NCBI GenBank assembly: GCA_024663395.1
Contig: JANFAH010000044.1
Span: 124,001 to 188,000, forward strand
DNA from: Pisolithus tinctorius
Lineage: Eukaryota; Basidiomycota; Agaricomycetes; Boletales; Pisolithaceae
Direction: 5' to 3'
DNA: 64,000 nt
Position 1 is the first letter of the stretch; each line of letters opens with the position of its first letter. The translations under genes and the position numbers were made by a program. This document shows positions 11,013 through 40,216 of this stretch, piece after piece. The notes below the pieces were generated by a model that was not told the origin of the DNA, did no database searches, and worked only from the letters and a program-made list of their open reading frames with translations.

Positions 11013-12007
11013 TGTGGGACATGACTTTTGGGAAGCATGTGACTAGAGGAAGGCTGAAGGGAGAATTCCCTAGGATTGTCCCAAGGGGCGCTGTGTGGAA
11101 GGAGAAGTCAAGAATAAAACTAGAAGAGGGTGGGGGAATTTGAGCGAGAGCCATGGAATTTAATTCCAGACAGATGTGGACATGTGAGGAACAGCGAGAT
11201 GGGTAAATGAAATTCTGAGAGGCTGCTATGCATCAAGAAGAGTGAATTCGAAGTGAAAGGGATACAGGATAAGGTGTGCAGGACTGGAGGACACAGGAGA
11301 CATGAAGACCACTGGGGACACTGAAGATGCTGTAGACTCTATATATGCACTTAGACTCTGGGAACTCTCAAACTCACAGAACACACACAGATAGCAACTC
11401 CAAAGGTGGGTGTATATTTCCGACATCATGGCGGAATTATATAGTACAAGGGAAGTAGGTACAAGTTGGAGTAAGGTGGGGTGGAAAAACTAAAAGACTG
11501 GAAAATAAAGGAAAGGACATCAGGCATCAGTGAATTACAGATGCATGTGAAATAGTCCAGTGGGTAGTAGACAAGAGTAAGAATGGGACAACAGTAAGGG
11601 GTATCTTCCAACAGAGTGAGGGTATGCATACAAGTGGGAGGTGGAGCTGAGTGGCACAGGAGGGCAGAGCATAGTGTACTGGCATGAAGTCCAGCTTGCA
11701 GAATTTAGGGCAACAGGGGAAACTGGAGTTTTTAGAGGCAAGTGGCACAGATGACTGGTGACATGGCTGAGTGGTGGCATGGCTACTGAATTCTGGATGA
11801 CTCTGTGCAAATGCAGAATTTCCAGATCAGCATTTTGATGACTGAGTGACATGCTGAAGGTTGGTAGAAACTCTGAAGGTGACAGGGGTTGGGAGGAAAC
11901 ATGAGGACACAAGCAGGAAAAAATTCCGAAATGGGTTTGTCATAGAGGCCTGCAGAATTTAGTGACAGATTCCTGTTCCAGCCTCAGGGAGTATATGGCT
12001 CCCTACA
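11013..12007 (-). repeat. 3' LTR of element 1 (family A, 995 bp)
   Basis: On the minus strand it begins TGTAGGGAGC at 12007 and ends GTCCCACA at 11013, the TG...CA form of an LTR. It matches the two LTRs of element 2 (30021-31039 and 40217-41234). A TATA-like TATATATG-type stretch near 11340 lies in the expected promoter zone. Confidence 0.85.
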
Positions 12008-12261
12008 CCTACTTTGAATGCTGACCATCCTTGGTCAGACTGAACTGAGATGTGACAGAGACAAGTGTGGAATATTGGCAGACATTATGTAACAATGATG
12101 GTGTGTGGTCAGAATTCTGCCTCATGCAGAGGGAAATTCCACATTGTATGAGATGGCCCTGCAGAATTTAAACATGCTCAGAAGGTGTCTCACCACTTGT
12201 CAAACTTCCACTCCCCAGCTACACCCACATCCACTACCCAAGCCCATACCCAACCTTCACC

Positions 12262-13812
12262 ATGCAAGCCTACTCAATCCATGATGCACAACCAGTTTGC
12301 AGCATGAGGGACCAGGCCATCACCTCACTGTTGGCAGCTCTAAGGCATGTTAGGGTGCTAATCAACACAGTGCCACAGCCTGAAGAGAGCTTAGAGGCGA
12401 TATACGAGTGGGTGGAGGACTGGGACCAGACTTGGGTGAGTGCACTAGAGACCCATGCAATGCAACATGCTGACTGATCCACAGGCTGGGATCTACTCAT
12501 GGTGGAAGTATGTCGATGAACAAGATCTCCATCCCAAAGGTGCACAATGCCAACCTATGCAACATGACTGAAGAATCCATGATACAGAAGAATGAGGTGA
12601 TCCTGGTGGCAATAGCAATAGTGGATCTTCAGTGGCCAGAAGGGCAGCATAGATTCAACATTGACAACCTTTTCAAGGACTACCAGGAGTGGGTAGAGGA
12701 GAGAGCACAGTTGGAGGCTGAGAGGTTGGCCAAGGCACCATCCATGCACACCTGGGGCCAAGCAGCAAGAGGTGAGGGCCAAGACTGCACACCAGAAGAC
12801 ACCAAAGGACACCCATCAAGAGGAGCTGCACATTTGACAGGGGAGGGCTCTGGTAGTGCAAGCAAGGGAAAAGGGAAGCAGAAGGTGTGTTCTATGTCCT
12901 TGACAACCCTGAGCATGAATGCTGACTTCAATGAAAATTCCACAGGCCACCAGCAAGGAGGATGAGCTGGCTGATGACATTGATGATGATGAGGGCAATG
13001 GCAAAGGTGAACCAGGTCCATCCACAAAGGGACCTCATGCAGCTGGGGACAATGAGCCATGTGAGACATGTGTCCAGGCAAACCTCACATGTGTCAGGGA
13101 GCCAGAGTTGTCCTGCAAATGGTGCAGGAAGGCAAAGTGCAAGTGCTTGCACTCTCAAGGCATAGGGAGAAAGGTGAGTACTGTACAGGTGAAATTCTGC
13201 AAGGGAACAAGTTGACACCACCTTCAGCAAAAGAACTCTGGTACCATTGGGGAGGCAGGGCCATCCCACAAATGCGTCAAATTGTTTATGACCTTGAAGG
13301 TGGCCCCAGCAGAATCTGCGACCAAACCTGCTAAGAAGCTTACTCTGAAAATTCCAGCTCGAAAACAGCAGCCTGATCTGACCCCCACATGCTCACCTTC
13401 ACCAGAACTGACCCCTTCCCCCCATGATCCTTTGCCAACCCCCCATCTCTTCTTCTGTGGGGCTACTCCAACGCTTGGGCCATCGTTCAAAGCCTCCTCA
13501 CCTCTCGTCAACAAGCCTCAAGCATCACTCCCCATTGACGAGCCGCAAATCAAGACCAAACCCTTCTTTGTGACTGTGACCAGCCTATTGAACAAACCTG
13601 GAGACATCAAAGTGCCAGTTCAAGGCAATGCTCCATTGGTTGCAGAAACTCTGGAGGTCGAAAGCCCATGCAAGCAGTTGACAGTGAATTTCATCAAATG
13701 TCTGCAAGTGCTCGAGGTGAGAGCAAAGGATGAAGAATTTGAGCTGGAGATGCTGGCAAGGTGGGTAACCCATCGGATCAAGACTGCATGGGCTAGACAG
13801 GAGGAGCTGTGA
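12262..13812 (+). pseudogene. Antisense accessory gene of element 1 with Cys cluster
   Basis: This spliced gene runs opposite to gag-pol, between the end of integrase and the 3' LTR. The exon model is 12262-12435, 12485-12884, 12946-13173 and 13228-13812, with introns of 49, 61 and 54 nt (GTGAGT...AG, GTGTGT...AG, GTGAGT...AG), all in phase 0. Exon 2 is acidic and helical (KDYQEWVEERAQLEAERLAK). Exon 3 has the cluster CETCVQANLTC then CKWCRKAKCKC, spacing C-x2-C-x6-C-x7-C-x2-C-x4-C-x-C, like Zn2Cys6-type or related zinc clusters. Exon 4 is Pro-rich and ends in a helical Arg/Glu/Lys segment. The only frame defect I see is a 2-nt loss in exon 2 relative to element 2. Its function is unknown; DNA or RNA binding is a guess from the cluster. 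Confidence 0.7.
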
Positions 13813-14100
13813 AGGTTGAAGGATGAACTCCAGGACCTGTAAACAGCATACTAGTGTCTGCAAAATTTTTGTACTCATATGTTCTGAATTTGTAAGAGTC
13901 TTTTGTGCATTGGTATTAGTACTACAGTAAGGGAAGGAAATGTAAGACTTCTGAAGGTAAAAGCATTGCAGAATTTTTTTTTTTTTTTTTTTTTTGACTC
14001 TGTTTCTTGTGAGCAGTGCAGATTTTATATATGAGATGAAATGGGTATCAATAAAGAAAGAATGAAGAAAGAAAAGAAAGGAGGTAAAGAGAAGGATGGA
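13813..14100. other. Spacer between convergent antisense gene and pol; A/T tract
   Basis: This holds the convergent 3' ends. A run of 22 T at 13974-13995 is a run of A in the pol sense. Element 2 has an A run at the same relative position (37485-37505), so the tract belongs to the family rather than to a recent insertion. Confidence 0.6.
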
Positions 14101-17100
14101 CTACTCATCTGACTTGTCCAAAGGGATGCCAGCGAGCATAGGGTCTGGGAATGAATCATCTTCAAGGCAATCCAGGTCTTGTGTGGAAGTGCCAGTCAGC
14201 TGGGTGACTTCAATATCAGTGTTATTCCATGGGAAATAGGGGTATAGGTGAAAGGCAGTGAAGCAGAATTTTGAGACAGTGCCATCTAATTCTGCAAGTA
14301 TGTATGAGCCACCTTTAGTGTGTCTGATGATGATCATAGGCCCTAGGTAGTGCGGTTTGGTTTTCCAGTTGAGTTCTAGTTCGATGCAGGAATTCCAAAT
14401 GAGGACAAGTGACCCTGGTTTGCAGTTAAAGTCTTTGATAGAACATGCAAAATGGTTGACAAAGTCCTTGGCTGAGGCAAAGCAGGATTTTAGGAACAAA
14501 TTGTGGATGTGAGCGAGGTCCTCTGGGTGTTTCTGGAGTTGGCATGCATGGTGAGCAATGAGTTCTGTGGTTGAGTAAAATTCTGCTTCAAAAGGGGATA
14601 AAAATGTTGCTTCGACCAGATCAAAAGGGAGTCTGGGTTCAACACCATGAGCCATATAGAATGGAGAAAATCTGGTTGCCTTGTGGACCGTAACCCTCTC
14701 TTCCCAAAATACCACAGGGACAACCTCTGACCACCTTGACACTTCCCCACCACAACTTTTTACCATTGCCTCTCTTACATCAAAATGCCGCCATTTGACA
14801 ACTCCATTAGCCTGCAAGTTATAAGGGGAGATGCATATGTGACGAATTCCAAAGGTCTTGGAGAGCCAGTTGAGAGCAAGGACATATGGTCCCCCATTAT
14901 CTGTGGCAATCTCCACAATGGCACCCCAATGGCACAGAATCTGTTTGAAGATGAACTTTCCAATGGACTTGCCTGTCTCTGCACGAAGCATAGCCCATTT
15001 GGGGTAACTGGTGAGCGAACAGAGGGCTTGGGTGGTGTAGCAAAAGCTGTTTGACTTTGGCATTAAGAACGTGTCCATATATGCCTTGTAGAATAGGGGT
15101 TCAGGAATGGTGATGACTGGTGGAATATGAATGCAGTCCAAATGGTGGATCTGGCACTTGTGGCATGATTTAACATACCAACAGATGTCCTGCTCTAGCA
15201 TGGGCCACCAAAAGTGAGTCAGCAAATGCATGCAGGTCAAGAAGATACCCTTGTGCCCTAGGTCATTGTGGGCCTGGCAGAGAATTCCAAGGTGTTTGTG
15301 TGGGGGTACCACTAGCTGATGCCATCCCTGGGGATCCTTCCTCCACAGTTCTCCTCCTTTCACAAAATACCAAGTCGCAAGACACACTAGGCTTTCCAAT
15401 TCCGCCTCTTCCAACCCTTCTGGCATTTTCTTTGTCTCCAAAAACTCCTTCACCACTCTCATCCTCTCCTCCCTCTGCTTCACTTTCTCTGACCTTGGAA
15501 TTTTGGGCTCAAGGACTCTGGGCATTGATTCCTCAGCAGTAAAGATTCCTAGACTCTGTGACAGGGGGAGAGATGAGTTTGACACAACACTCAGAATTTC
15601 CAAGGGGTAAGGTTGAGACTCGAAACACACTTCCCTATGATTCAAGAGCTCAACTGCAAAAGCCCCACACTCATCTATCCAATCCTCATAGTCCTCATCT
15701 CCCTCCTCATCTTCTTCTGCTCTTGGCCTCCTTGAAAGTCCATCCAGTGCTGTGTGCTTGTGTGCTGGAACATGTATGAGCTCAAAGTCAAATAGGAGAA
15801 TTCCAGCGATCCAATGATTTATGGTCACATTAGGCTGTAGGTTGGGATTGTTAATCATCCCTTTGATATATTGTGCATCCACCTTGACAACTAAATTCTG
15901 CATGCCAAAGATATGAAGTCAGATGTTGTGCAAAGCATGGAAAAGTCCAAATAGCTCTAGCTTAGCTTGGCTGTAGTGATGTTCACAATCATTGAGGGTT
16001 ATCAAGCCAAACCTAGCAGGGTAGCATTTTCCATCTTCCCCTTCCTGCATGAGGAGGTACCCAACAGTGATGTTAGAAGTGTCGACTGCTAAGATGACTT
16101 TCCTTTTGGAATTATAGTCAATAGTTCACAATGCAGGGGATGAGATGATCGCCTGGCAGAGGTACTCCATGGCTTCCCTATGTTCATCATGGAATTTGAA
16201 GGGGACATCCTTCTTGGTCAACTCAACAAGGGGACAGGCATGTTTGGTGAAGTCTTTGATGAAGATCCTGCAGTACAAGCAGAGACCTAAAAATCCATGT
16301 ACTTCAGTAATGTTTCTGCAGTAAGGCCTATCTTTAATCTTCTGGACTTTAGTTTCATCTGGAATTCTACCCTCAAATGACACCTTATGCCCAACCACTA
16401 TGATAGATGGCACAGCAATGATGCATTTCTTTGCTGACACAGTGGCTCCTGCATGGTGCAGACAGTGTAAGACTTGGTTGACATTCTGTAGGTGCTTCCA
16501 GATGAAGCATCTAATCCCAGAATTCTGTGGAATCATTTTGTAGGTCCCATCAGGATTTTGGTAGTGAGATTTGGGGCCTTTAATAGGACAGTTGTTGCTA
16601 AACGGAATGGTGACTTCCAGAATTTTGTCCTTTAAAATCCAACAGATGTCTCTGTGGAAAATTTGGATGGCATTTGTGTAGCCCATAGGAAGTTTGGTGA
16701 GTCAAAGAGTACCTATAGGAGTTTGGAAGGTAGTGAGGTCATGGTAATTGTTGTGTATGGTGTGATGATCATATCTGACCATAAGATCTAAAATTCCATA
16801 GACCAAATGGCATGTGAAGGCTTCATTGATTGAATAGATGAAGGGGGGAACAGCTGAGTCCTGGATAGAAATGGCATTTAGAGGTTGTAAGTCATGTCTT
16901 CTTGACTCTGCAGAACCATTTTGAGCAATAGGATGAAGTAGATGGTTCATAAACCCCTGTGGAGATCTTTTCTTTGATGATGTTAACAACTTCATGGAAA
17001 ATAGCAGGAGGAATGGGAATATTTTGCTTGATCCAAGGCTTGTGAGCTAGCATAGGTATCTTCAGGGGCAGGAACATGTCCTATCAAAAGGTCCCTCTTT

Positions 17101-18381
17101 CTGAAGCATCCCAAGCAAAGGCATCCTCTTGCTCCCTCACCAACCATCATACTAGGTCTAATTCTGTAGGCCAAAGGAACCTTGCTGGGTCCAGATTGAG
17201 CTCATCAGCTCTTTCCTGAGTAAACCTGGAACCTGGCATGAATGGAGGGGGATGAGTAGGTAAAACAGGCAGATCTGCGAGTGGGTCTTCAGCCTCCTGA
17301 TGCTCTACCCAGAATTCTGCTGGCATTGACATCAGTACCAGCCTCACCTTCCTTGCTACAGGTTTGTACTTTAAGACATGATAAATGGGGTTGAACTGAT
17401 AAGTAGTGTGTAAGGCAGAGATTGTCAGTGGAGAAATGGTAGTAGCAGTTGAAAACAAGAAAGGATCAGTTGGAGAAATGGAACTGGTGTCAAAGGGATC
17501 AACAGGGGGTGTACTGTTGCCTCATAAATTGTAGATAAATGCTGCAGTGGAATTTATGGCAGTGTCTGTGGGCAAAAATGTGGTAGACTTCAAAGGGTAT
17601 AAAGGTGGATCAGAAACATAAAGTGAACACATGGAGAAAGTGCAGTCCTGGTCTCCTCACAGATCATATGAGTCCTCAACCAATATTAAAAACCCTGTTC
17701 AGGTGGATTCATGTGGTGACACATTTGTTTTCACGTGAAGAAGTCTTCTTTGTCTTTGGAATTTACAAAACATGGAAGGGGTTGCAGTCTGTTGTGAGGT
17801 CATGTCGGAATTAAAACTTGTTTCCCAGAATTAGGGTCATGGATTTCTAGAGACTGTTCTCCATCAGGGAAATCATGAAGGATGCTGGAGAGTAGGCAGA
17901 AGAAGGGTCAACTGAGCAGTAAGTTGAAAGGCGTGTGATCAATGACCTGGATTTGTAGATGGGCCTTGATGTTTCCCATGTGCAAGGTGGCATTCTCTAT
18001 GACCCCAAGGGTGCTTTCTTTGGATTGGTTAGCGGCCTCCAAAGTCATGGTCATGTCAGTATGGAGAGGGGCCTCTAAGGCTTCCCACAACTCCCATCAC
18101 AAGGCCACTACCTGGCATCTGCTGTCCAGGATACATTCAACATGGAGTTTGTCCATCAAGATTCTGTCAACAGCACGTAAGGGAGCTGTAGTGAGGCCTA
18201 CACACTTCCCTTCTGTGTCTCTGACCCAGTACTGCTCATAGGATGCCCAGGCAGCTGAGGGTGTTGTGTCTGATGCAGTTTCTAAACTCCTGATCATTAT
18301 CTTCTTCGTTGCAGCCAGTTCTCTGACCTGCTTGTGAATCTCCAGGCTGACAGCTAATAGGTCTTTAGTGGAGATCTCCAT
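14101..18381 (-). pseudogene. pol relic of element 1 (PR-RT-RNaseH-IN)
   Basis: Reading right to left: a protease-like segment (about 18381-17900), where the active-site triplet reads DSR instead of DSG at 18118-18126; a linker; reverse transcriptase (about 17080-16130), where the expected YIDD box reads FSNN at 16591-16602; RNase H (about 16080-15880), with AVDTS and KLELFGL; then a long open frame (15903-14101) with the integrase HHCC finger (GHKG...CHKCQ), the catalytic Asps in AYMDTF and ATDNGG, and Lys instead of the catalytic Glu at 14794-14796. There is no chromodomain after integrase. TGA codons replace arginines at several places. It is a dead copy of an agaricomycete Ty3 lineage. 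Confidence 0.85.
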
Positions 18382-18390
18382 CTTTGCATC

Positions 18391-20935
18391 TCAGACCTGG
18401 TTTACAATCCACTTGGTTGCCACAGCCCCATTGAAGCTGCTTTGGTAATGGAATTGAGGTGCAGAATTTGTAGATGGCTTAGGCTTCTGGAGATCTGTAA
18501 GATTAGGAGCAACTGGAGCTTTTCTGGCTGCTGGGACTTCTGAAGACAAGGTGGGGTTAGCTGGAGTGGAGTTACTAACTGGGATAGGGGGTGCTGGCAT
18601 GTTGGCTGATGCTGGGACTGCTAGTATCAGCCTTTGACGATGAACCAGGACTTCTACACCATTGAAATGAGCTGTCTTCTTTTTCTTGATAGTGTTCTTC
18701 AACTCTTACCTGTGCATAAGCCCTTGCTAAGGCATGTTGGTCTTCTTCATCAGCATCCTCTTCTAGGTCTTTGTTGACTAGATAGGAAGAGGGGTGTAGG
18801 TCAACTTGGTATTCTGAGGCATCCTTGTTGCTGAAGAACATTGTGCTGATGAGATGGGGAGGAGTATCATGCCCACAGGACAAGGTTGACTGCTGGCCAG
18901 GTTGCTGAACTGAGATGAGGTTTGCCAAGGCAATGATCAAGTTGCACATGGCAAGGAAGTTATTGATCTTTTCCTTGAAATTACGACCCGCAGCTGTCCT
19001 AGGAATGTCAGAGCCATCTGGCATGAAAACTCTTCCCCCAATCAGGGAGCATTTCCCAGCTTGTATGTATTTGTGACACAGCACACACTCTGCAGTTCTG
19101 TGGCCATCTGTTCCCCTGCAGAAGAAACACTGTGGATCAAAGAAATGATGGAATTGGCCTTCTTGACCTTGTTGAGGAGGCGGGGCAGATACAGGTTGCT
19201 GAGTGACATGAACATACTCTCATTTCAAGATAGTAGGAACAGTTGGTGAGGAAGATGGAGTGGAGTTCTGGGGAAACAGTGCTGACAAATCTGGCTGAGG
19301 GAGGTTTCATTTGGCCCCACTGAGCAGGTAGTTGGCATGTTTATAGACTGTATTGAACTCCCATGGTTCGTCAATGTCATGATCTAAGTCAGAGAGTTGC
19401 AATTGCATGAGCAAGGAATTCCAAAACCTCAGAGGAAAGCCCTCAAGGAATTTCTCATTGATGTGGTCCTCAGGGAGTTTCTTCTTCTGGATGAGGCTGA
19501 GGATGCATCAGAATTCTTGGATGTATTTCCCAAGATCTTCCAGTGATCCCATCAGTTTCTGAACTTGATGGTAGAGTAAGGTTTCAAGGTTGGCTTTAGT
19601 ATAGTGACAATCTTTCACTGAGGCACCTGGATAGTAGTTCAGGAGTTCTTTGGAAAATGCATCCCAGTCATTGAAGCCATTGGTTGCAGCATCTAAGGTG
19701 GACCAAAACTCTGCCTCATTGTGGTCAGCATAATGAATGACCCAGTGGATCTTATCTTTTCCAGAAACGAGACCAGCATTGAGGCAGAGTTGTTCAATGT
19801 CTTTGAGGTAATGGGTGATATCTTCAGTATGCCCAGAAAACTTTGGGGCTTTGTTGGAACCCCTGAGCAGCATATCTTTTGTTCCAGACATTATGTGAGG
19901 TGGTGCAGGGATCTGGATCAGAATTCAGGGAGGGATAGGAGTGGGATTCAAGAGGGTTGAGGCAAGAGTATTCTGTATGGGTATTTGAGTAGAAAGGGTG
20001 ATAGCAGAATTTGCAATTAGGGAGTAGGAAGGAAGGAGGAGCTGTTCAGTGGCTAGTTCTGAATCACTGGATGGCGAGGATGTGTCATAGTCATGCCCTG
20101 ACCCCAGCCAGACTTGGCCTTGTATTCATTCAGTCTGGCCTCAGCCTCACCAAGTCCTTGTCCCCAGATAGTCTAGTGCAGTGAGCACTGCTTTGCAGTG
20201 CATGTCACTTCAGTAAAGCCCTGCCCAGTCTTGTCCCCAGTCCACCCTGTCCTGGTCTCCATTGTCTTTGTCATACCTTACTAATCCTTGTCTTACCAAT
20301 CATCTTAGCAATCTTTGTGAGATTGGCATTGCCAGTCTCCATACTATAGTTGTCTCTAGTATATAAACCCATAGATACTTGGCCTGTATTCCCTCAGTCT
20401 GAAATCAACTAAGTTACTCTGATAATCTCATCTCAGCCTTGGACTCAGACCAAGACCCACACAAGGGAATAGTGCTGTATTCTCAGTCACTAAGTCCAGT
20501 CAGTCCACCACCTGTATCTCTGCCCCTTCTCCCTGATCCCAACCCTTTGGCCTCACACCTGCTTTGGTCTCCAGTCTGGACTCAACCCAGACAACCAAAA
20601 CTTGACAGGATGATGAAGAAGTTAGTTCTGAGAGAGGCAAAAGTTCTTGACATTCAGTGGGAGGATTGAAGGGTTCATCAAAGTCAAAGCCTCCTGGAAA
20701 TGCTGGGTAAAATGCTGGCAACTCTGGGCTCTGAAAGATCTTGTCTAAACTGAGATCTGAGTCTGATGAGTGTGGCTCTGAAATATCTCTAGGATCAGCT
20801 ACTGGAATTAAGATTTCTGATGAGGAAATAGATAGTCTGTGGAAGGGCTCTAGGGGCTCTTTGAATTCGGTTCTTTGATGAGTGGGCTGTAAGGATCTCC
20901 TTTCCAGATCTACAGACCCCTCATGGTGGGCTCCA
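18391..20935 (-). pseudogene. gag relic of element 1
   Basis: The capsid region lies around 19891-19508 and matches element 2 (for example DKIHWVIHYADH and FWSTLDAAT). A nucleocapsid-type finger with spacing C-x2-C-x5-H-x4-C (CFFCRGTDGHRTAEC) is at about 19130-19080, one residue longer than the usual CCHC knuckle, followed by YIQAGKC. The C-terminal part (19084-18391) is acidic then Pro/Ala-rich. The N-terminal part (20608-20760) is separated from the capsid by the family B solo LTR. A primer-binding-site-like TGGAGCCCACC (minus strand) ends at 20935, next to the LTR. Confidence 0.8.
20083..20607 (+). mobile_element. Solo LTR, family B, 525 bp
   Basis: It starts TGTCATAGTC, ends AAAACTTGACA, and is flanked by the 5-bp repeat GGATG at 20078-20082 and 20608-20612. 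The uninterrupted site is preserved in element 2 near 31355-31395, which proves the insertion limits. A TATA box (GTATATAAAC) is at about 20359. Related copies are at 42445-42951 and 50120-50704. Confidence 0.92.
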
Positions 20936-20941
20936 AAATGT

Positions 20942-21242
20942 TGTGGGACATGACTTCTGGGAAGTGTGTGACTAGAGGAAGGCTGAAGGGAGAATTCCCT
21001 AGGATCATCCCAAGGGGTGCTGTGTGGAAGGAGAAGTCAAGAATAAAACTAGAAGAGGGTGGGGGAATTCAAGCAAGAGCCATGGAATTTAATTCTGGAC
21101 AGATGTGGACCCATGAGGAACAGCAAGATGGGTAAACAAAATTCTGAGAGGCCACTATGTGTCAAGAAGAGTGAATTCAAAGCAAAAGGGATATGGGATA
21201 AGGTGTGCAGGACTGGAGGACACAGGAGACGCAAAGACCACT
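20942..21242 (-). repeat. 5' LTR fragment of element 1 (family A)
   Basis: The LTR end TGTCCCACA (minus strand) is at 20942, and the match to 11013-11313 continues to 21242. There a family D LTR starts abruptly. The missing remainder of this LTR is not found beyond the family D fragment. Confidence 0.85.
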
Positions 21243-21681
21243 TGTTACACTTGACCAAAGTCAAGATGTAGGGAGAGCTCAAACGCAGACTAAGGGTTTC
21301 TACTGAGCAATGGCTGCAGTAACCTTCATAAACAATGAAGGATTTAGGCAACACCAGTAAGAGTGGTCCAGGTTAGGGACACTGAGGGTGAAGTTCTGAG
21401 AGAACACTGTGTATGATTGAGCAGCTCAAGTCTGGGGTTCCAGGACTTGAGCTGGCAGTCTAAATACTACATGAGGCATCTGCATGTAACAAGGTAACTA
21501 CACCATTGGTTGAACAGTGGTGACACATGTCCTAAGCATGTAGTGAGAACATAACACTAATGGTGGAAATAAGGAGCCATTGGATCAGAGAGAAGACAGC
21601 TCAAAAGGGAAATCAGTCCAATGCATCAAACACAAGGTAATCATACAGTGAAAAGGAGAAAAGTAGGGGTGAAACATAACA
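21243..21681 (-). repeat. 3' LTR of element 5 (family D, 439 bp)
   Basis: On the minus strand it starts TGTTATGTTT at 21681 and ends GTGTAACA at 21243. It aligns with the 453-bp LTRs of element 4. Confidence 0.85.
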
Positions 21682-30020: not shown

Positions 30021-31039
30021 TGTAGGGAGCTGTATACTCCCTGAGGCTGGAACAGGAGTCTGTTACTAAACTCTGCTGGCCTCCACAACAACCCCTATTG
30101 CTCTAGGCCTTTGGATGCCTTCAGAGTTCCTCACATTTGTAACCTTGTGCTTCCTCCTAACCCCTGTTGCCTTTGGAATTTCTCCCAACCTTCAGCACAT
30201 CACCCAGCCATCAATGAGCTGGTCTGGAAATTCCACATTCACGCAGAGTCATCTGGAATTCAGTAGCCATGCCACTGCTCAGCCACATCACCAGTCATCC
30301 ATGCCACTTACCTCTAAAAAACTCCAGATTCCCCTGTCGCCCTAAACTCCACAAGCTGGACTTCATGCCAGTACGCTATGCTCTGCCCTCCTGTGCTGCT
30401 CAGCTCCACCTCCCACTTGTATGCATACTCTCATTCTGTTGGAAGATACCCCTTTACCATTGTCCCACTCTTACTCTTGTCTACTACCCACCGGACTATT
30501 TCACATGCATCTGTATTTCACTGATGTCTGACATCCTACCCTTTATTTTTCTGGTCTTTTAGTTCTTCTGCCCCACCTTACTCTGACTCATACCTGCTTT
30601 CCCTGTACTATATAATTCCACTGTGATGTCAGAAATATACCACCCACCTTTAGAGTCACTATCTGTGTGTGTTCCGCGAGTTCAAGAAGCTCTCAGAGTC
30701 TAAGTGCATATATTGAGTCTACAGCATCTACAGTGTCTCCAGTGATCCTCATGTCTCTTGCATCTTCCAACCCTGCACATCTTATCCCATACCCCTCTCA
30801 CCTCAAATACACCCTTCTCATCACATAATGGCTTCCTGGAATTTCCTATACCCATCTCACTGTTCCTCACCTGTTCTCAACCCTCCAGAATTAAATTCTC
30901 TGACCATCGCACATATTCCCCACCCCTTCTAGGGTAACCCTTGACTTCTCCTTCCACACAGCACCCCTTGGGACGATCCTAGGGAATTCTCCCTATGGCC
31001 TTCCTCTTGATGCACGCTTCCCAGAAGTAGTGTCCCACA
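30021..31039 (+). repeat. 5' LTR of element 2 (1019 bp)
   Basis: It starts TGTAGGGAGC and ends TAGTGTCCCACA. A TATA-like box (ACTATATAATTCC) is at about 30605. It pairs with 40217-41234; differences between the two are largely CG versus TG or CA. Confidence 0.92.
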
Positions 31040-31062: not shown

Positions 31063-31099
31063 GGTCTGTAGATCTGGAAAGGAGATCCTTATGACCCAC

Positions 31100-33290
31100 T
31101 CATCAAAGAACCGAACTCAAAGAGCTCCTAGAGCCCTTCCACAGACTATCTATTTCCTCATCAGAAATCTTAATTCTGGTAGCTGATCCTAGAGATATTT
31201 CAGAGCCACACTTGTCAGACTCAGAGCTTGGTTTAGATGAGATCTTTCAGAGCCCAGAGTCCCCAGTGTTTTACCCAGTGTTTCCAGGAGGCTTTGACTT
31301 TGACAAACCCTTCGATCCTCCTGCTGAACGTCAAGAACTTTCACCTCTCTCAGAACTAACTTCTTTGTCGTCCTCACCATCCAGTGATTCAGAACTAGCC
31401 GCTGAACAGCTCCTCCTTCCTTCCCACTCCCTAATCGCAAATTCCACTATCACCCTTTCTACTCAAATACCCATACAGAATACTCTTGCCTCAACCCTCT
31501 TGAATTCTGCCCCTATCCCTCCTCAAATTCCAATACAGGCCCCCGCCCCACCTCGCATAATGTCTGGAGCTAGAGACATGCCACTCAGGGGCTCTAACAA
31601 AGTCCCAAAATTTTCCAGTCATACTGAAGACATCACTTGCTACCTTGAAGATGTTGAACAACTCTGCATCGAAGCTGGCCCTGACACCGGAAAAGATAAG
31701 ATCCACTGGGTCATCCATTATGCCAATCACAACAAGGCAGAATTTTGGTCCACCTTAGACGCTGCAACCGACAGCTTCAATGACTGGGACACATTTTCCA
31801 AAGAACTCCTGAACTACTATCTGGGTGCCTCAGTGAAAGATCATTGCTATACTAAAGCTGACCTCAAAACCTTACTCTACCATCAAGTTCAGAAACTGAT
31901 GGGATTGCTGGAAGATCTTGGGAAATATGTCTGGGAATTCTGACACATCCTTGGCCTCGTCCAGAAGAAGAAGAAACTCCCTGAGGACTACATCAACAAG
32001 AAATTCCTTGAGGGGTTTCCCCTGAGGTTTCAGAATTCCTTGCTCACACAATTACAACTCTCTGACTTAGATCATGACATCGACAAACCATGGGAGTTTG
32101 ATATAGTCTATAAACATGCCAACTACCTGCTCAGTGGGGCCAAATGAAACCTTCCTCAGCCAGATTTGTCAGCACTGTTTCCCCAGAATTCTGCTCCATC
32201 TTCCTCACTGACTGTTCCTACTATTTTGAAACAAGAATATGTTCATGTCACTCAGCAACCCGTTTCTGCCTTGCCTCCTCAACAAGGTCAAGAAGGCCAA
32301 TTCTGTCATTCCTTTGATCCACAGTGTTTCTTCTGTGGAGGAACAGATGGCCACAGAACTGCAGAGTGTGCACTGTGTCATGAATACATACAAGCTGGGA
32401 AATGCTCCCTGATTGGAGGAAGAGTTTTCATGCCAGATGGCTCAGACATTCCTAGGACAGCTGCGGGTCATAATTTCAAGGAAAAGATCGATAACTTCCT
32501 TGCCATGCATGAATTGATCATTGCCTCAGCAAACCTTGTCTCAGTTCAGTGACCTGGCCAGCAGTCAACCTCATCCCACAGGCATGATACTCCTCCCCAT
32601 CTCATCAGCACAATGTTCTTCAGCAACGAGGATGCCTCAGAATACCAAGTCAACCTACACCCCTCTTCCTATCTAGTTGACAAAAACCTAGAGGAGGATG
32701 CTGATGAAGAGGACCAACGTGCCTTAGCAAGGGCTTATGCACAGGTGGAAGAGTTGAAGAACACTATCAAGAAAAAGAAGACAGCTCGTTTTGATGGTGT
32801 GGAAGTCCCAGTTCATTGTCAAAGACCGGCACTAGCAGTCCCAGCATTGGTCAACACACCAGTGCCCCCTATCCCCATTGGTAATTCCACTCCAGCTAAC
32901 CCTGCCTCATCTTCAGAAGCCCCAGCAGCCAGAAAAGCACCAGTTACTCCTAATCTTACAGATCTCTGGAAGCCTAAGTCATCTACAAATTCTGCACCCC
33001 AATTCTGTTACCAAAGCAGCTTCGATGAGGCTGCAGTGACCAAGTGGATCATAAACCAGGTCTTAGACGCAAAGATGGAGATCTCCACTAAAGACCTATT
33101 AGCTGTCAGCCCAGAGATTCACAAGCAGGTCAGAGAACTGGCTGCGATGAAGAAGATAACAATTGGGAGTTTAGAAACCGCATCAGATGTGACACCCTTG
33201 GCTGCCTGGGTGTCCCACGAGCAGTACTGGGTCAGAGACACAGAAGGGAAGTGCATAGGCCTCGCTACACCCCCTTATGTGCTGTCGATG
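31100..33290 (+). pseudogene. gag of element 2
   Basis: The frame is readable from about 31100, without a clear ATG, through a Pro/Ser-rich leader and a capsid-like helical region (MSGARDMPLRGSNK at about 31560 to 31943). It is interrupted by a TGA at 31941-31943 and further stops at about 32147 and 32550. The finger CFFCGGTDGHRTAEC is at about 32326-32370 with the C-x2-C-x5-H-x4-C spacing, followed by YIQAGKC. A Pro/Ala-rich tail leads to the protease, with a frame change near 33275. It would form the virus-like particle shell and bind element RNA. Confidence 0.8.
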
Positions 33291-36200
33291 GAGTCTTGAT
33301 GGACAAACTCCATGTCGAATGTATTCTGGACAGCAGATGCCAGGTAGTGGCCTTGCAATGGGAGTTGTGGGAAGCCTTAGAGGCCCCTCTCCATACTGAC
33401 ATGACTATGACTCTGGAGGCCACTAACCAATCTAAAGAAAGAACCCTTGGGGTCATGGAGAATGCCACCTTGCACATAGGAAATGTTGAAGCCCATCTAC
33501 AGATCCAAGTCGTTGATCATGCACCTTCCAACTTACTGCTCGGTTGACCCTTCTTCTGCCTGCTTTCCAGTGTCCTTTGTGATTTCCCTGATGGAGAACA
33601 GTCTCTAGCAATCTGTGACCCTAATTCTGGGAAACAGGTTTTAATTCCAACACGACCTCACAACAGACTGCAACCCCTTCCACATTTTGTAAATTGCGAA
33701 GATGAAGAAGACTTCTTCGCACAAAAACAAATGCATCACCACCTGAATCCACCTGAACAGGGTTTTTAATATCAGTTGAGGACTTGCGCGATCTGTGAGG
33801 AGACCAGGACTGCACTTTCTCTGTGTTCACTTTATGTTTCAGATCTGCCTTTGTACCCTTTGAAGTCTACCATGTTTTTGCCCACAGACACTGCCATAAA
33901 TTCTGCTGCAGCATTTATCTATGATTTACGAGGCAACAGCATGCCCCCTGTCGATCCCTTTGACACTAGTTCTGTTTCCCTGTCTGATCCTTTCTTGTTC
34001 TTGACTGCTACTACCATTTCTCCACTGACAATCTCTGCCTTACACTCTACTTATCAGTTTGATCCTGTTTATCATGTCTTAAAGTACAAACCTGTAGTGA
34101 GGAAGGTGAGGCCAGTACTGATGTCAATGCCAGCAGAATTCCAGGTAGAGCATCAGGAGGCTGAAGACCCACTTGCAGATCTGCCTGTTTTACCTACTCA
34201 TCCCCCTCTGTTCATGCCAGGTTCCAGGTTTACCCAGGAAAGAGCTGACAAGCTTGATCTGGACCCAGCAAAGTTCCTTTGGCTTACAGAATTAGACCTA
34301 GTGCAATGGTTGGTCAGGGAGCAAGAGGATGCCTTTGCTTTGGACGCTTCGGAAAGAGGGACCTTTCGAGAGGACATGTTCCTGCCTCTGAAGATACCTA
34401 TGCTAGCCCACAAGCCTTGGGTCGAGCAAAATATTCCCGTTCCTCCTGCTATTTTCTGTGAAGTCGTTAACATCATCAAAGAAAAGATTTCTGCAGGGGT
34501 TTATGAACTGTCTACTTCATCTTACTGCTCAAAATGGTTCTGCATAGTCAAGAAGGATGGAAAATCTTTGCACCTTGTCCATGACTTACAACCTCTAAAT
34601 GCCATTTCTATCCAGGACTCAGCCATTCCCCCCTTTGTTGATTTGATCACTGAAGCCTTCGCTTGTCATTCGGTCTATGGAATTTTAGATCTTATGGTTG
34701 GATATGATCATCGCACCATACACAACAATTACTGCGACCTCACTACCTTCCAAACTCCTATTGGCACCCTTTGACTCACCAAACTTCCTATGGGCTACAC
34801 GAATGCCATCCAAATTTTCCACAGAGATGTCTGCTGGATCTTAAAGGACAAAATTCCCAAAGTCACCATTCCATTTATCAATGACTGTCCTATTAAGGGC
34901 CCCAAATCTCGCTACTAAAATCCCAATGGGACCTACAAAATGATTCCACAGAATTCCGGGATTAGAGGCTTCATCTGGGAGCACCTGCAGAATGTCAACC
35001 AAGTCATACACTGTCTGCATCATGCAGGAGCCACCATCTCGGCAAAGAAATGTGTCATTGCTGCACCATCTATCATAGTGGTTGGACATAAGGTGTCATT
35101 CAAGGGTAGAATTCCGGATGAAATTAAAGTTCAGAAGATTAAAGATTGGCCTTACTGCACAAACATTACTGAAGTGTGCAGATTTTTAGGTCTCTGCTCG
35201 TATTGCAGGATCTTCGTCAAAGACTTTGCCAAACATGCCCATCCCCTCGTCGAGCTGACCAAGAAGGATGTCCCCTTCAAATTCCATGACAAACATAGGG
35301 AAGCTGTGGAGTACCTCTGCCAGGCAATCATCTTGTCCCCTGCATTGTGAACTATCGACTATAATTCCAAAAGGAAGGTCATCTTAGCAGTCGACACTTC
35401 TAACATCACTGTTGGGTACCTCCTCATGCAGGAAGGGGAAGATGGAAAATGCTACCCTGCTAGGTTTGGCTTGATAACCCTCAATGATTGCGATGAACAT
35501 CACTACAGCCAAGCTAAGCTAGAGCTATTTGGACTTTTCTGTGCTTTGCACAATGTCCAACTTCATATCTTTGGTGTGCAGAATTTAGTTGTCAAGGTGG
35601 ATGCATGATATATCAAAGGGATGATTTACAATCCCAATCTACAGCCTAATGCCACCATAAATCGTTGGATCGCCGGAATTCTCCTATTCAACTTCAAGCT
35701 CATACATGTTCCAGCACACAAGCACACAGTGCTGGACAGACTTTCAAGGAGGCTGAGAGCAGAAGAAGATGAGGAGGGAGATGAGGACTATGAGGATTGG
35801 ATAGATGAGTGTAGGGCTTTTGCAGTCGAGCTCTTGAATCATAGGGAAGCACATTTCGAGTCTCAACCTTACCCCTTGAAAATTCTGAGCATCATGTCAG
35901 ACTCATCTCTCCCCCTGTCACAGAGTCTAGGAATCTTTACTGCCAAAGAATTGATGCCTGGAGTTCCTGAGCCCAAAATTCCGAGGTCAGAGAAAGTGAA
36001 GCAGAGGGAGGAGAGGATGAGAGTGGTGAAGGAGTTTTTGGAAATGAAGAAAATGCCCAAAGGGTTGGAAGAGGTGGAATTGGAAAGCCTAGTGCATCTT
36101 GCAACTCAGTATTTCATGAAAGGGGGAGAACTGTGGAGGAAGGATCCCCAGGGATGGCACCAGCTAGTGGTACCCCCACACAAATGCCTTGGAATTCTCC

Positions 36201-37318
36201 ACCAAGCCCACAATGACCTAGGGCACAAGGGTATCTTCTCAACTTGCATGCATTTGCTGACTCGCTTTTGGTGGCCCATGCTAGAGCAGGACATCTGTTG
36301 GTATGTTAAATCATGCCACGAGTGCCAGATCCGCCATTTGGATCGCATTCATATTCCACCAGTCATTACCATTCCCGAACCCCTATTTTACAAGGCTTAT
36401 ATGGACATGTTCTTAATGCTGAAGTCAAATGGGTTTTGCTATGTTACCCAAGCCCGCTGTTCACTCACCAGTTACCCCAAATGGGCTATGCTTCGTGCAG
36501 AGACAGGCAAGTCCATTGGAAAGTTCATCTTCAAACAGATTCTGTGCCATTGGGGTGCTGTTGCAGAGATTGTCACAGATAATGGGGGACTGTACATCCT
36601 TGCTCTTGACTGGCTCTCCAAGACCTTTGGAATTTGTCACATACACATCTCCCCTTATAACTTGCAGGCTAATGGAGTTGTCGAATGGTGGCATTTTGAT
36701 GTAAGAGAGGCAATGGTAAAAAGTTGTAGTGGGGAAGTGACAAGGTGGTCAGAAGTGGCCCCTGCAGTATTTTGGGCAGAGAGAGTTACGGTCCACAAGG
36801 CAACCAGGTTTTCTCCATTCTATATGGCTCATGGTGTTGAACCCAGACTCCCTTTTGATCTGGTCAAAGCGATGTTCTTAGCCCCTTTTGAGGCAGAATT
36901 TTACTTGACCACAGATCTCATTACTCACTGTGCTTGCCAACTCCAGAAATGCCTGGAGGACCTTGCTCACATCCATGATTTGGTCCTAAAATCCTGCTTT
37001 GCCTCAGCCAAGGATTTTGTCGACCGTTTTGCATGTTCTATCAAGGACTTTAACTTTGAACCAGGGTCACTTGTCCTCATTTGGAATTCCTGCATTGAAC
37101 TGGAACTCAACCAGAAAACCAAACCACATTACCTAGGGCCTATGGTCGTTGTCAGATGCACTAAAGGCGGCTTGTACATACTTGCGGAATTAGATGGCAC
37201 CATCTCAAAATTCTGCTTTGCTGCCTTTCGCCTATACCCCTATTTCCCACAGAATAATGCTCGTATTGAAGTCACTCCAGCTGACTGGTGCTTCCTCACA
37301 AGACCTGGATCATCTTGA
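33251..37318 (+). pseudogene. pol of element 2 (PR-RT-RNaseH-IN)
   Basis: The protease-like part has ECILDSRCQVVAL; Arg at 33335-33337 replaces the Gly of the DSG active site. Reverse transcriptase spans about 34430-35340; its catalytic box reads FIND at 34874-34885 instead of YIDD. RNase H (35370-35620) keeps Asp-Glu-Asp in AVDTS, KLELFGL and VKVDA. Integrase has HNDLGHKG ... CHECQ and a complete catalytic set: Asp in AYMDMF, Asp in VTDNGG and Glu at 36683-36685 in NGVVEWW. The protein ends without a chromodomain. TGA or TAA codons break the frame at about 33770, 34772, 34916, 35348 and 35606. Confidence 0.88.
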
Positions 37319-37678
37319 AGATGATGCGTTCCCAGACCCTATGCTTGCTGGTGTCCCTTTGGACGAGTCAGATGAGTTGTCTGTCCTTCTCTTTGTCTCC
37401 TTTCTTTTCTTTCTCCACTCTGTCTTTTATTGATACCCATTTCACCTTATATATAAAACCAGCACTGCTCACAAGAAAGAGCTACAAAAAAAAAAAAAAA
37501 AAAAATTGTTTGCAACACTTCTTCCTTCAGAAGTCTTATTTTTTCCTTCCCTTACTGTAGTACTAATACTGATGCACGAAAGACTCTTACAAATTTGGAG
37601 CATACGAGTACAAAAAAAAAAAAAATTCCACAGACTTTAGTACACTATTTACAGGTCCCAGAGATCATCCTTCAACCT
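37319..37678. other. Spacer with A tracts between convergent genes of element 2
   Basis: A run of A at about 37485-37505 and a second at 37612-37624 lie between the end of pol and the end of the antisense gene. The first corresponds to the T run at 13974-13995 of element 1 seen from the other strand. Confidence 0.5.
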
Positions 37679-39942
37679 TCACAACTCCTCCTGTCTAGCC
37701 CATGCAGTCTCGATCCAATGTGTTACCTGCCTTGCCAACATCTCCAGCAGCTGGTAGACCTGCTGCAGCTTGAATTCCTCATCCTTGGCCCTTGCCTCGA
37801 GCACTCGCAGATGCTCAATGATGTTCACCGTTGACTGCTCATGTGGGTGTTTGACCTCTGGAATTTCTGTGACTGATGGAGTGTTGCTCTGGCCTGATAC
37901 TTCAATGTCTCCAGGTTCATCCAGTAAGCTGGTCGCAGTCGCAAAAAATGGTTCAACCTTGACTTGTGGTTCATCAATGGGGAGTGACACTTGAGGTTCA
38001 TTGCCAGGGGCTGGAGAAGGCTTGAACGATGGTCCAGGTGTTGGAGTGGCCCTGCAGAAGAAGAGACGAGGACTTGGGGAAGGATTGCAAGGGGAGGGAC
38101 TTGGTTCTGGGGTAGGTGAGTGTGTGGGGGTCAGATCAGGCTGACATTTGTGAGCCAGAATTTTCAGAGTAAGCTTCTGAGCAGGCCAGGTTGCAGGTTC
38201 TGCTGGGGTTGCCTTCAAAGTCATAATCGATTTGACCCATTTGTGGGATGGGCCTGCTTCCCCAGGAGTACTGGAGTTCTTCCACTGAAGGTGGTTGTCA
38301 AGTCTGGGCCTACTCCGACCAACTCCGATGATAAACAGGGTCTAGAGGAGGGTCCAGAAGCAAGTCCGACACACAGGAACAGAACTCCGACTAGTGGAGT
38401 GTCAGCAGAGACGAAGACCACCAAAGCAAAGGCGGAGCAGAGTGAGGGCATCGGGTTTAGCTCGTGTGCTACCCCCTTGCACGATCTCAGCCCTCGTATT
38501 TCAGAGGGAGAGTACAGACAGAGAGTTGGAGATAAATCCGACAGGCAGAAGACGGAATCAGAGGGAGTAGGAACTAAGTTGATATTCGTACTGAAGAACA
38601 GTGGAGTACAGTACATGCTTTTATACTGCTACAGAGGTACAGCAATCAGAATTGGAACTGACATATGGAGACTCATAAATTTTCAAGTAAAATTTCCTGG
38701 ACGATGAATGAAGGGTAGACAGAGGACATACAAACAGGTAACACAGAACATCCAGAAAAGGAAACAGTCCAGGTGCTGGACCATGCAGTGAGCGTGCTGC
38801 GGAGTTCCTGACTGCGAAGGTAGTCACATGACCCCTCAGAGGATGGACTGCTCAGTCTGGTAGGAGAGTGACACAAGTCTGACAGCAGTCAGAGTGGAGA
38901 TGGTTCACAACCAACAGAAGTTGCGCAGAGTTGGTGCGGAGTGAGTGAATGACTGGCAGAGTAGGGCGCAGAGTGAGTAAGGGCTTAATGTGAATGCACA
39001 GTTATGACAGTGGTGTCAACTCATTCCCTTGCAGAATTTCACCTGTACAGTACTCACCTTTCTCCTGATGCCTCGAGAGCATGAGCACTTGCGCTTCGCC
39101 TTCCTGCACCATTTGCAGGACACCTCTGGCTCCCCAACACACATGAGGTTCGCCTGGGCACATGTCTCACAGGGCTTGTCATCTCCAGTCATGTGAGGTC
39201 CCATTGCCCTTGTTGTCGTCAATGTTGTTGGCAAGCTCGTCCTCTTCACTGGTAGCCTGCGGAGTTTCCATTGCAGTCAACAATCACGCTCAGGGTTGTC
39301 AGGGACGTCACATGCACCTGCTGTTTCCCTTTTCCCTTGATCGCACTGCCACAGCCCCCCCCTGCTGAGTGTGTCCCTCCTCTCGCAGTGTCCCCTTCAG
39401 TGTCCTCTGGCACATGGTCTTGGCCCTCGTCTCTTGCTGTTTGGCCCCAGGTATGCACTGACGGTGCCTTGGCAAGCCTCTCAGCCTCCAAGTGTGCTCT
39501 CTCCTTGACCTGCTCCTGGTAGTCCTTGAAGATGTCATCGATGTGGAATCTTCACTGCCCTTCTGGCCAATGAAGATCTGCTATGGCTATGACCACTGGG
39601 ATCACCTCATTCTGCTCCATCAGGGATTCTTCAGTCATGTCATGAAGGTTGGCATCACACACCTTCGGGATGGAGATCTTGTTCTCATCGATGTACTTCC
39701 ACCACAAGTAAATACCAGCCTGGAGATCTGTTAGTGTGTGGTGTTGCATGAGTATCTAGTGCACTCACCCAGGTCTGGTCCCAGTCCCCCACCCACTCAT
39801 ATATCGCCTCTAAGCTCTCTTTGGGTTGTGGCGCCATGTCGATCAGCACTCTAATGTGCCTCAGCACTGCTGACAGCGAGGTAATTGCCTGGTCCCTCAT
39901 GCTGAACACCAGTCGTGTGTCACAGATCGAGTACGCTTGCAT
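37679..39942 (-). pseudogene. Antisense accessory gene of element 2
   Basis: Exon model on the minus strand: 39942-39769, 39719-39318, 39256-39058 and 38284-37679. Introns 1 and 2 are 49 and 61 nt, exactly as in element 1; exon 1 is 174 nt in both, and exon 2 is 402 nt here against 400 in element 1. Intron 3 contains a solo LTR (38296-39009), so it is now 773 nt. The cysteine cluster reads CETCAQANLMC then CKWCRKAKRKC. Defects are a TGA in exon 2 near 39545 and a deletion of roughly 30 nt in exon 3 that shifts the frame. The last exon ends in a helical Arg/Glu/Gln-rich segment. An in-frame upstream ATG at 40056 could extend the N-terminus. Confidence 0.72.
38296..39009 (-). mobile_element. 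Solo LTR, family E, 714 bp, in intron 3
   Basis: On the minus strand it starts TGTCATAACT at 39009 and ends CAGACTTGACA at 38296. The 5-bp repeat GTGGT flanks it at 38291-38295 and 39010-39014. Element 1 keeps the empty site (13211-13224). A TATA box (GTATAAAAGC) is near 38628. It lies 8 bp from the splice acceptor of the antisense gene. Confidence 0.93.
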
Positions 39943-40216
39943 GTCGATGAGCGGATGAGACATATGGGCTTGGGCTTGGATAGTGGATAGAGGTATAGTT
40001 GGGGAGTGGCAGTTTGACAAGCAGTGAGCCACCTTCTTGGCATATTTAAATTCCACAGGGCTATCTCATACAATGTGGAATTCCCTTCTGCATGAGGCAG
40101 AATTCCAACCACGTGCCATCATTGTTATGTAAGACCTGCCAAAATTCCACACTTGTCTCTGTCATGTCCCAGTTTGGTCTGACCGAGGATGGTCAGCATT
40201 CAAAGTCCCCGGGAGG

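What the first reader, a model, noticed from the sequence alone, without database searches (positions are those of the whole stretch)
12262..13812. Spliced gene antisense to gag-pol carried inside a Ty3/gypsy element, conserved in both family A copies
Seen: both family A elements carry, between the end of pol and the 3' LTR, a gene on the opposite strand. Exon 1 is 174 nt in both; introns 1 and 2 are 49 and 61 nt in both; exon 2 is 402 nt in element 2 (37679-39942) and 400 in element 1; in element 1 all three introns are phase 0 and the exons join in frame. A cysteine cluster (CETC...CKWCRKAK) is kept. Inference: because the element's genomic RNA is read on the other strand, these introns are invisible to splicing of that RNA and survive retrotransposition, which would let an LTR element carry an intron-containing gene. 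Antisense accessory ORFs are known in some plant Ty3 elements; I am not aware of this spliced cysteine-cluster type being described for fungi.
Basis: partly seen in the sequence, partly recalled or inferred. Interest (0 to 1): 0.85.

Follow-up and report, generated by a model that had tools for sequence, protein, structure and literature searches.

The report
Spliced antisense gene in fungal retrotransposons
A family of jumping elements in a tree-symbiotic fungus carries an extra four-exon gene on its reverse strand that looks like a zinc-binding nuclear protein, shared by at least three element families in this genome; because the element copies itself through RNA of the other strand, the gene can keep its introns.

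Summary
The genome is very probably Pisolithus tinctorius (ectomycorrhizal basidiomycete): one copy's spliced product equals GenBank model M404DRAFT_20576 residue for residue. The Ty3 elements carry, between integrase and 3' LTR and antisense to gag-pol, a four-exon gene. GT-AG holds in 33-34 of 34 copies per intron; 11 of 40 aligned rows (10 distinct) encode an uninterrupted 467-481 aa protein. Among those ten, dN/dS is 0.16-0.29 in all 36 of 45 pairs with dS >= 0.1. Of 52 integrase copies, 46 have the gene on the opposite strand within 2.6 kb. A second family (roughly 40-60% protein identity) and a far more divergent third one (106 of 150 scored integrases) share position, introns, a C-x2-C-x6-C-x7-C-x2-C-x6-C cluster and C-terminal part. 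A palindrome, CTGACCG-N4-CGGTCAG, lies between LTR edge and gene. Antisense genes at this place are known (Grande, Retand, Botrytis brtn, HTLV HBZ), so this is a new variant: multi-intron, zinc-cluster-like. Transcription, splicing and function are inferred; closest working analogue: an HBZ-like nuclear regulator.

The parts
11013..12007 (-). 3' LTR of element 1 (element reads on the minus strand)
   Evidence: 84.5% identity to the LTR of the young copy L050 over its full 983 bp
20942..21251 (-). 5' LTR remnant of element 1 (310 bp, truncated)
   Evidence: matches LTR positions 674-983
14101..20886 (-). gag-protease, RT-RNase H and integrase region of element 1 (decayed)
   Evidence: blastn with the genes of L050, 87-89%; domain order from Pfam hits in L050
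12262..12435 (+). antisense gene, exon 1, element 1
   Evidence: 174 nt in 31 of 34 copies; ATG shared in most rows
12436..12484 (+). intron 1
   Evidence: 48-51 nt; GT-AG in 33 of 34 copies
12485..12884 (+). exon 2 (400 nt, lacks 2 nt: frameshift in this copy)
   Evidence: 402 nt in 31 of 34 copies
12885..12945 (+). intron 2
   Evidence: 60-61 nt; GT-AG in 33 of 34
12946..13173 (+). exon 3 with the six-cysteine cluster
   Evidence: length a multiple of 3 in 34 of 34; cysteines invariant in 18 of 18 sequences of two families chosen for the alignment; full spacing in 30 of 40 spliced readings
13174..13227 (+). intron 3
   Evidence: 53-55 nt; GT-AG in 34 of 34
13228..13842 (+). exon 4 (Pro/Ser-rich, C-terminal helix), up to the stop position used by the open copies (13840-13842); the TGA at 13810-13812 is decay
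   Evidence: helix 429-466 in the AlphaFold model, block pLDDT 77-93 over 421-467
12021..12038 (.). palindrome CTGACC(G/A)-N4-(C/T)(G/A)GTCAG between LTR edge and antisense ATG, element 1
30021..31039 (+). 5' LTR of element 2
31095..37377 (+). gag-protease, RT-RNase H and integrase region of element 2
   Evidence: 88-89% to L050 genes
37649..39942 (-). antisense gene of element 2, broken by a stop in exon 2, losses in exon 3 and an insertion in intron 3
   Evidence: inserted stretch 38296-38814 matches 41296-41818 in inverted orientation
40179..40196 (.). same palindrome, element 2
40217..41234 (+). 3' LTR of element 2

Best explanation
A multi-copy Ty3 lineage carries, between integrase and 3' LTR and on the strand opposite gag-pol, its own four-exon accessory gene. 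Shown by sequence: orientation and position, three introns at kept positions, uninterrupted products in some copies, purifying selection, presence beside most scored integrases of three families. Inferred from anatomy: transcription starts at or just inside the 3' LTR, the RNA is spliced by the host, and the protein (helical N-terminus, acidic stretch, six-cysteine zinc cluster, basic GRKRK-type stretch, Pro/Ser-rich linker, C-terminal coiled-coil-like helix) acts in the nucleus as a DNA-binding regulator of the element, in the manner of HTLV HBZ or Grande GENE23. The conserved palindrome with everted CCG-N4-CGG half-sites between the LTR edge and the antisense start is its most likely binding site. 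Introns persist because the RNA that is reverse transcribed is the other strand, on which they are not introns.
For: At least 40 copies in the genome. GT-AG in 33, 33 and 34 of 34 copies; exon 3 length a multiple of 3 in 34 of 34 and exon 4 in one frame class in 28 of 34. 11 of 40 rows open throughout, all 11 with the full cysteine spacing; 30 of 40 rows keep it overall. dN/dS 0.16-0.29 in 36 of 36 pairs with dS >= 0.1; with CpG-touching codons left out, 36 of the 39 pairs that still have 10 or more changes give 0.10-0.24. Readings of the opposite strand carry 3-16 stops in all 11 open rows. One product identical to a GenBank model. Antisense gene beside 46 of 52 integrase copies; 10 of 12 family-2 loci show integrase on the opposite strand; 106 of 150 family-3 integrases, with 2 of 3 fetched family-3 copies open and dN/dS 0.08-0.19, two of three pairs near saturation. 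Profile match of families 1+2 to 3 over the cluster, probability 89%, E 2e-6. Palindrome: 212 genome hits against 0 for the reversed control; 80 of 100 listed sites have a listed gene match downstream on the same strand, 0 on the other.
Against: No RNA, promoter or binding data. Pfam Zn_clus stays below its cut-off of 21 bits in all seven whole proteins scanned and in 7 of 8 exon-3 pieces; one piece just reaches it (21.1). After LAC9 (E 0.16) the next PDB sequence matches are XIAP RING domains (E 0.52-1.0), so another zinc fold is not excluded. The AlphaFold models are weak (pTM 0.30 and 0.33) and give no PDB fold match. The palindrome adjoins the polypurine tract and could be an RNA or priming element instead; within family 1 it is no more conserved than its flanks (0.92 against 0.94 and 0.90). 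Among the closest copies dN/dS rises to 0.40-0.73 (five pairs), and to 2.43 for one pair with 2 synonymous changes, as expected of dead insertions. One unspliced sense-strand reading reaches 318 codons (L037), though not in the other open rows.
Confidence: 0.6

Rival explanations
1. The gene is a functional accessory gene, but its product works in replication or transport (nucleic-acid chaperone, nuclear import of the pre-integration complex, packaging) and not in transcriptional control.
For: Basic stretches next to the cysteine cluster and a C-terminal helix fit nucleic-acid binding in general; nothing here shows sequence-specific binding.
Against: Cluster spacing is that of Zn2Cys6 factors, the best PDB sequence hit is the Zn2Cys6 factor LAC9 (weak, E 0.16), and a CCG-N4-CGG palindrome lies ahead of the gene's start.
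Confidence: 0.2
2. The protein counteracts host silencing (methylation or RNAi), as VANC proteins do for Arabidopsis VANDAL transposons (recalled, no call).
For: Old copies are stripped of CpG (CpG observed/expected 0.0-1.12 over the coding region), which fits heavy methylation of the family and gives such a protein a purpose.
Against: No homology or motif points to it; CpG decay is general for transposons in such genomes (recalled).
Confidence: 0.15
3. Antisense RNA, not the protein, matters (dsRNA or interference with gag-pol), and the open frame is a by-product.
For: Antisense transcripts without coding role are known in some retrotransposons (passages of PMC7264820).
Against: dN/dS 0.16-0.29, frame-keeping indels, invariant cysteines between families.
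Confidence: 0.03
4. A host gene captured recently as a passenger, without use to the element.
For: Some zinc-cluster hits were not tied to an integrase in the listings (44 of 150 for family 3; 20 of 100 palindrome sites without a listed gene), so free-standing relatives cannot be excluded; the listings are capped.
Against: Shared by three element families at the same place with the same exon layout and under purifying selection.
Confidence: 0.02

Closest known systems
Boty brtn (Botrytis cinerea; Zhao et al. 2011, title and citing passages only)
   Same: Antisense gene in a fungal Ty3 element
   Different: Whether brtn has introns or a cysteine cluster could not be read (paper not held); that element has a chromodomain according to PMC4227169 (passage)
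Grande gene23 and Retand TRP28 antisense ORFs of plant Ty3 elements (PMC7264820, PMC11963269, passages)
   Same: Antisense ORF between pol and 3' LTR; GENE23 is nuclear with its own promoter; TRP28 is predicted to bind DNA
   Different: The word intron does not occur in the main text of either paper; other protein domains
HTLV-1 HBZ
   Same: Antisense gene at the 3' end of a retroelement with nuclear product (passage); spliced (recalled)
   Different: bZIP protein in an infectious retrovirus (recalled); here four fungal exons and a zinc cluster
Fungal Zn2Cys6 transcription factors (GAL4/LAC9 type)
   Same: C-x2-C-x6-C-x7-C-x2-C-x6-C spacing; nearby basic residues; a helix that could dimerise
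   Different: The basic half is second, not first: the halves match LAC9 and the Pfam profile (family 2: residues 48-61 to profile 2-15; family 1: residues 36-55 to profile 16-33) in swapped order; mostly below the Pfam cut-off

Membership tests
Ty3 (Metaviridae) LTR retrotransposon | LTRs, gag with protease, RT, RNase H, then integrase | tested here: met
   Paired LTRs of 983 bp, 98.2% alike in L050/L051; Asp protease, RT_RNaseH and Integrase_H2C2 above cut-off in that order, RVT_1 E 1.7e-5 but 25.0 against a cut-off of 29.6 bits
Ty3 (Metaviridae) LTR retrotransposon | Short target-site duplication | tested here: inconclusive
   None seen by eye at L050/L051 or at element 2
Antisense accessory ORF (aORF-3R) of LTR elements | Antisense to gag-pol between pol and 3' LTR | tested here: met
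Antisense accessory ORF (aORF-3R) of LTR elements | Present in most copies of the family | tested here: met
   46 of 52 integrase copies; 106 of 150 in family 3; capped lists, some assembly duplicates included
Antisense accessory ORF (aORF-3R) of LTR elements | Transcribed from an antisense promoter | not testable with these tools
   no RNA data
Fungal Zn2Cys6 binuclear cluster | Six cysteines with CX2CX6CX5-12CX2CX6-8C spacing (consensus recalled) | tested here: met
   invariant in 18 of 18 aligned exon-3 sequences of families 1 and 2 and in 3 of 3 family-3 copies
Fungal Zn2Cys6 binuclear cluster | Score above the Pfam Zn_clus cut-off (21 bits) | tested here: inconclusive
   0 of 7 whole proteins, best 14.8; 1 of 8 exon-3 pieces, L055 at 21.1, other family-2 pieces 19.6-20.3, family-1 pieces 13.6 or less; UniRef names six of the 76 listed proteins Zn(2)-C6 fungal-type
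Fungal Zn2Cys6 binuclear cluster | Basic, DNA-contacting residues in the first half of the cluster (recalled for GAL4) | tested here: not met
   basic half is second; halves align in swapped order
HBZ-like spliced antisense regulator | Spliced antisense mRNA | not testable with these tools
   splice sites conserved, no RNA

The most novel reading that the evidence does not exclude
Ty3 elements of this fungal lineage have long carried a multi-intron, self-regulating zinc-cluster gene on the reverse strand: the protein dimerises, binds the CCG-N4-CGG palindrome at the 3' LTR edge and sets the balance between its own antisense transcription and gag-pol, an independently evolved counterpart of HBZ that also shows introns can be kept through many retrotransposition cycles.
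Probability: 0.3. Interest if true: 0.8.

Novelty: new variant of a known kind. Interest (0 to 1): 0.62.

Why it matters
A gene in sense orientation would lose its introns when a retrotransposon copies itself through spliced RNA. Here three introns persist through many copies and between families, so reverse-strand carriage is a natural route by which an LTR element keeps an intron-containing gene. The proteins are listed in public databases as hypothetical or Zn(2)-C6 host proteins, so gene counts for this symbiont include transposon genes, and similar hidden genes may sit in other fungi. A six-cysteine protein with a nearby palindrome gives a directly testable case for what antisense retroelement genes do, which the reviews seen call unknown for plant and fungal elements.

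Tried and rejected
Rejected: (a) host gene with an element inserted beside it, because the gene recurs at the same place in about 40 scored copies and three families; (b) a sense-strand env-like gene, because sense readings of the 11 open rows carry 3-16 stops and their longest stretch varies from row to row, up to 318 codons in L037; (c) non-coding antisense RNA, because of dN/dS. Rows dropped before counts: L039 (split match) was left out of the alignment; L041-L047 are the same places as L002-L008, which were not aligned again; L011/L012 and L043/L044 have identical coding sequences, probable assembly duplicates; one search also left out E2, L040, L044, L011, L046 and L010 from the splice and length counts and used seven chosen pairs for intron/exon divergence; one search left out E2, L044, L011, L043 and L036. 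Exon-3 alignment A3 took 13 of 16 printed family-1 rows (without L019 and L035, near-repeats, and L043, which has a stop and has lost the first cysteine) and 5 of the 9 family-2 rows in which the cluster pattern was found (without L054 and L057, which have stops, and L061, L062); 3 of 12 family-2 loci gave no pattern match. Coordinate lists typed for searches came from capped tables (40 or 150 scored copies; one search lists 100 of 212 sites), and the gene lists for searches are selections from those tables, so misses may be list limits.

Full report
What was checked. The window is contig 44, 124001-188000, of a 92.5 Mb assembly in 221 contigs. A protein spliced from native copy L025 is identical over 467 residues to GenBank model M404DRAFT_20576 of Pisolithus tinctorius Marx 270, so the genome is very probably that species or one very near it (Boletales).

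The copies. I aligned 40 rows: the two window elements and 38 others, of which L011 repeats L012 and L044 repeats L043 in coding sequence. The ATG, the splice sites and, in most rows, a CTAAC/CTGAC motif before the acceptor are shared. In 34 rows GT-AG is kept in 33, 33 and 34 for introns 1-3; intron lengths are 48-51, 60-61 and 53-55. Exon 3 is a multiple of three in 34 of 34; exon 2 is 402 in 31 of 34; exon 1 is 174 in 31 of 34; exon 4 is in the common frame class in 28 of 34. Eleven rows, ten distinct, are open from ATG to a shared stop position, TAA in 8 and TAG in 3, all with the six-cysteine spacing. Element 1 of the window lacks 2 nt in exon 2 and stops at codon 87; element 2 stops at codon 114, has a 199-nt exon 3 and an insertion in intron 3. 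The CpG observed/expected ratio runs from 0.0 to 1.12, and open rows lie at 0.49-1.10, which fits stops made by CpG-to-TpG decay; I did not count stops by cause.

Selection. In the ten distinct open copies, 36 of 45 pairs have dS of at least 0.1 and all 36 have dN/dS 0.16-0.29; the other nine give 0.18-0.26 (three), 0.40-0.73 (five) and 2.43 (one pair with two synonymous changes). Third positions carry most change, for example 28, 22, 73 for L012-L034. Leaving out codons that touch CpG keeps the result: of 39 pairs with ten or more remaining changes, 36 give 0.10-0.24 and the three L031 pairs 0.39-0.43. Intron and exon divergence are similar in total over seven chosen pairs (0.111 and 0.109), so the argument rests on codon position and frame, not on overall conservation.

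The element. Young copy L050/L051 has 983 bp LTRs that are 98.2% alike, a gag-protease frame, and an RT-RNase H frame and an integrase frame separated by one stop; Pfam finds the protease, RNase H and Integrase_H2C2 domains above cut-off and RVT_1 below it. No target-site duplication was seen by eye. Of 52 distinct integrase places from two capped searches, 46 have the antisense gene on the opposite strand within 2.6 kb, mostly 251-334 bp away; a few of the places are probable assembly duplicates.

Other families. Family 2 (P0037-P0056, about 40-60% identity) keeps the exon layout and the cluster; 10 of 12 fetched loci have integrase on the opposite strand within the fetched DNA, L061 and L062 do not; the cluster pattern was found in 9 of the 12. 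A search with the family-2 cluster led to family 3. At L064 the integrase C-terminus is 64% identical to family 1 and lies on the opposite strand. Family 3 has exons of 204, 246-267, 226 and 269-272 nt and the cluster in exon 3; L065 and L066 are open, L064 has one stop. In L065 the assigned intron 3 is 31 nt, short for an intron, so that boundary is uncertain; in L066 intron 3 is 342 nt, with extra sequence that L064 lacks. Of 150 scored family-3 integrases, 106 have the cluster exon on the opposite strand downstream, 100 of these at 1.16-1.25 kb; two same-strand cases were seen. Family 1+2 and family 3 profiles match only over the cluster (47 columns, probability 89%, E 2e-6); common descent of the rest is inferred from layout.

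The protein. 467-481 aa in the open family-1 copies and 314-322 in family 3: N-terminal helices, acidic stretch, cluster C-x2-C-x6-C-x7-C-x2-C-x6-C, basic stretch, Pro/Ser-rich part (family 1), C-terminal helix 429-466 with block pLDDT 77-93. The cluster stretch is modelled at pLDDT 78-84 in the full-length model but at 64-68 in the fragment model; neither gives a PDB fold match. The best PDB sequence match of the exon-3 profile is LAC9, E 0.16, with the two half-motifs in swapped order; next come XIAP RING domains at E 0.52-1.0. Zn_clus matches 17 of 18 exon-3 pieces at E up to 10; scored singly, 1 of 8 pieces reaches the cut-off (L055, 21.1 against 21), the other family-2 pieces lie at 19.6-20.3 and family-1 pieces at 13.6 or less, again with the second half of the cluster on the first half of the profile in family 2 and the reverse in family 1. 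So it resembles a zinc-cluster protein with swapped halves; I do not file it as a Zn2Cys6 member.

The palindrome. CTGACCG-TCC(T/C)-CGGTCAG lies between LTR edge and ATG in the copies of all three families whose upstream DNA I read. Between families the 19 bases from the G before it are 18-19 of 19 identical while the 40 bases after it are 8-18 of 40 in ungapped comparison; the 22 bases before it are also alike between families 1 and 2 (19-20 of 22) and show a one-base shift against family 3. The pattern ATGCTGACCRTCCYYRGTCAG occurs 212 times in the genome against 0 for the reversed control. Of the 100 listed, 80 have a listed antisense-gene match within 3.5 kb downstream on the same strand, 0 on the other. 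In the window it occurs without mismatch only at the two 3' LTR edges. Within family 1 its 14 positions outside CpG are invariant in 35 rows, but so are most neighbours. Everted CCG-N4-CGG sites are bound by the Zn2Cys6 factor Leu3 (recalled). Its closeness to the polypurine tract also allows a hairpin or priming role.

Mechanism and limits. Shown: anatomy, introns, selection, spread. Inferred: antisense promoter, splicing in cells, zinc and DNA binding, regulation of the element. Intron retention follows from strand logic: the RNA that is reverse transcribed is the reverse complement of the gene, so host splicing has no reason to remove these introns from it.

Literature. [quoted passage not shown] the first cites Boty in Botrytis and Sclerotinia and calls for a look for antisense and spliced transcripts; neither main text contains the word intron. 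PMC8365987 and PMC4227169 mention brtn (passages). PMC12477816 (passages) describes an opposite-strand accessory gene in an algal DNA transposon. Searches listed no paper whose title or abstract start names a multi-intron antisense zinc-cluster gene in a fungal LTR element; most subscription papers are not in that library.

Noticed in passing
genome-wide; window 12021-12038 and 40179-40196: Palindrome CTGACCG-N4-CGGTCAG beside the 3' LTR edge in three Ty3 families, 212 exact pattern hits in the genome against 0 for the control.
   Followed up: partly
G000 contigs C32, C24, C29, C19 and others: Family 3 has many integrase matches lying in open frames of about 1209 aa, which suggests a recently active Ty3 lineage with the antisense gene.
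   Followed up: no
window 38296-38814: Inserted stretch inside intron 3 of the antisense gene of element 2; it matches 41296-41818 in inverted orientation.
   Followed up: no
window 24054-24559: Tandem repeat with a period of 64-65 nt.
   Followed up: no
window 13974-13995 and the same place in L050: A run of 22 A (longer in L050) on the element's sense strand between the end of pol and the antisense gene.
   Followed up: no
public proteins P0001-P0076: Transposon antisense genes are deposited as hypothetical or Zn(2)-C6 fungal-type proteins of Pisolithus; some predictions (e.g. P0012) carry an unrelated N-terminus.
   Followed up: partly
family-1 copies: Strong CpG loss in many copies (CpG observed/expected down to 0.0), a sign of methylation-driven decay.
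   Followed up: partly
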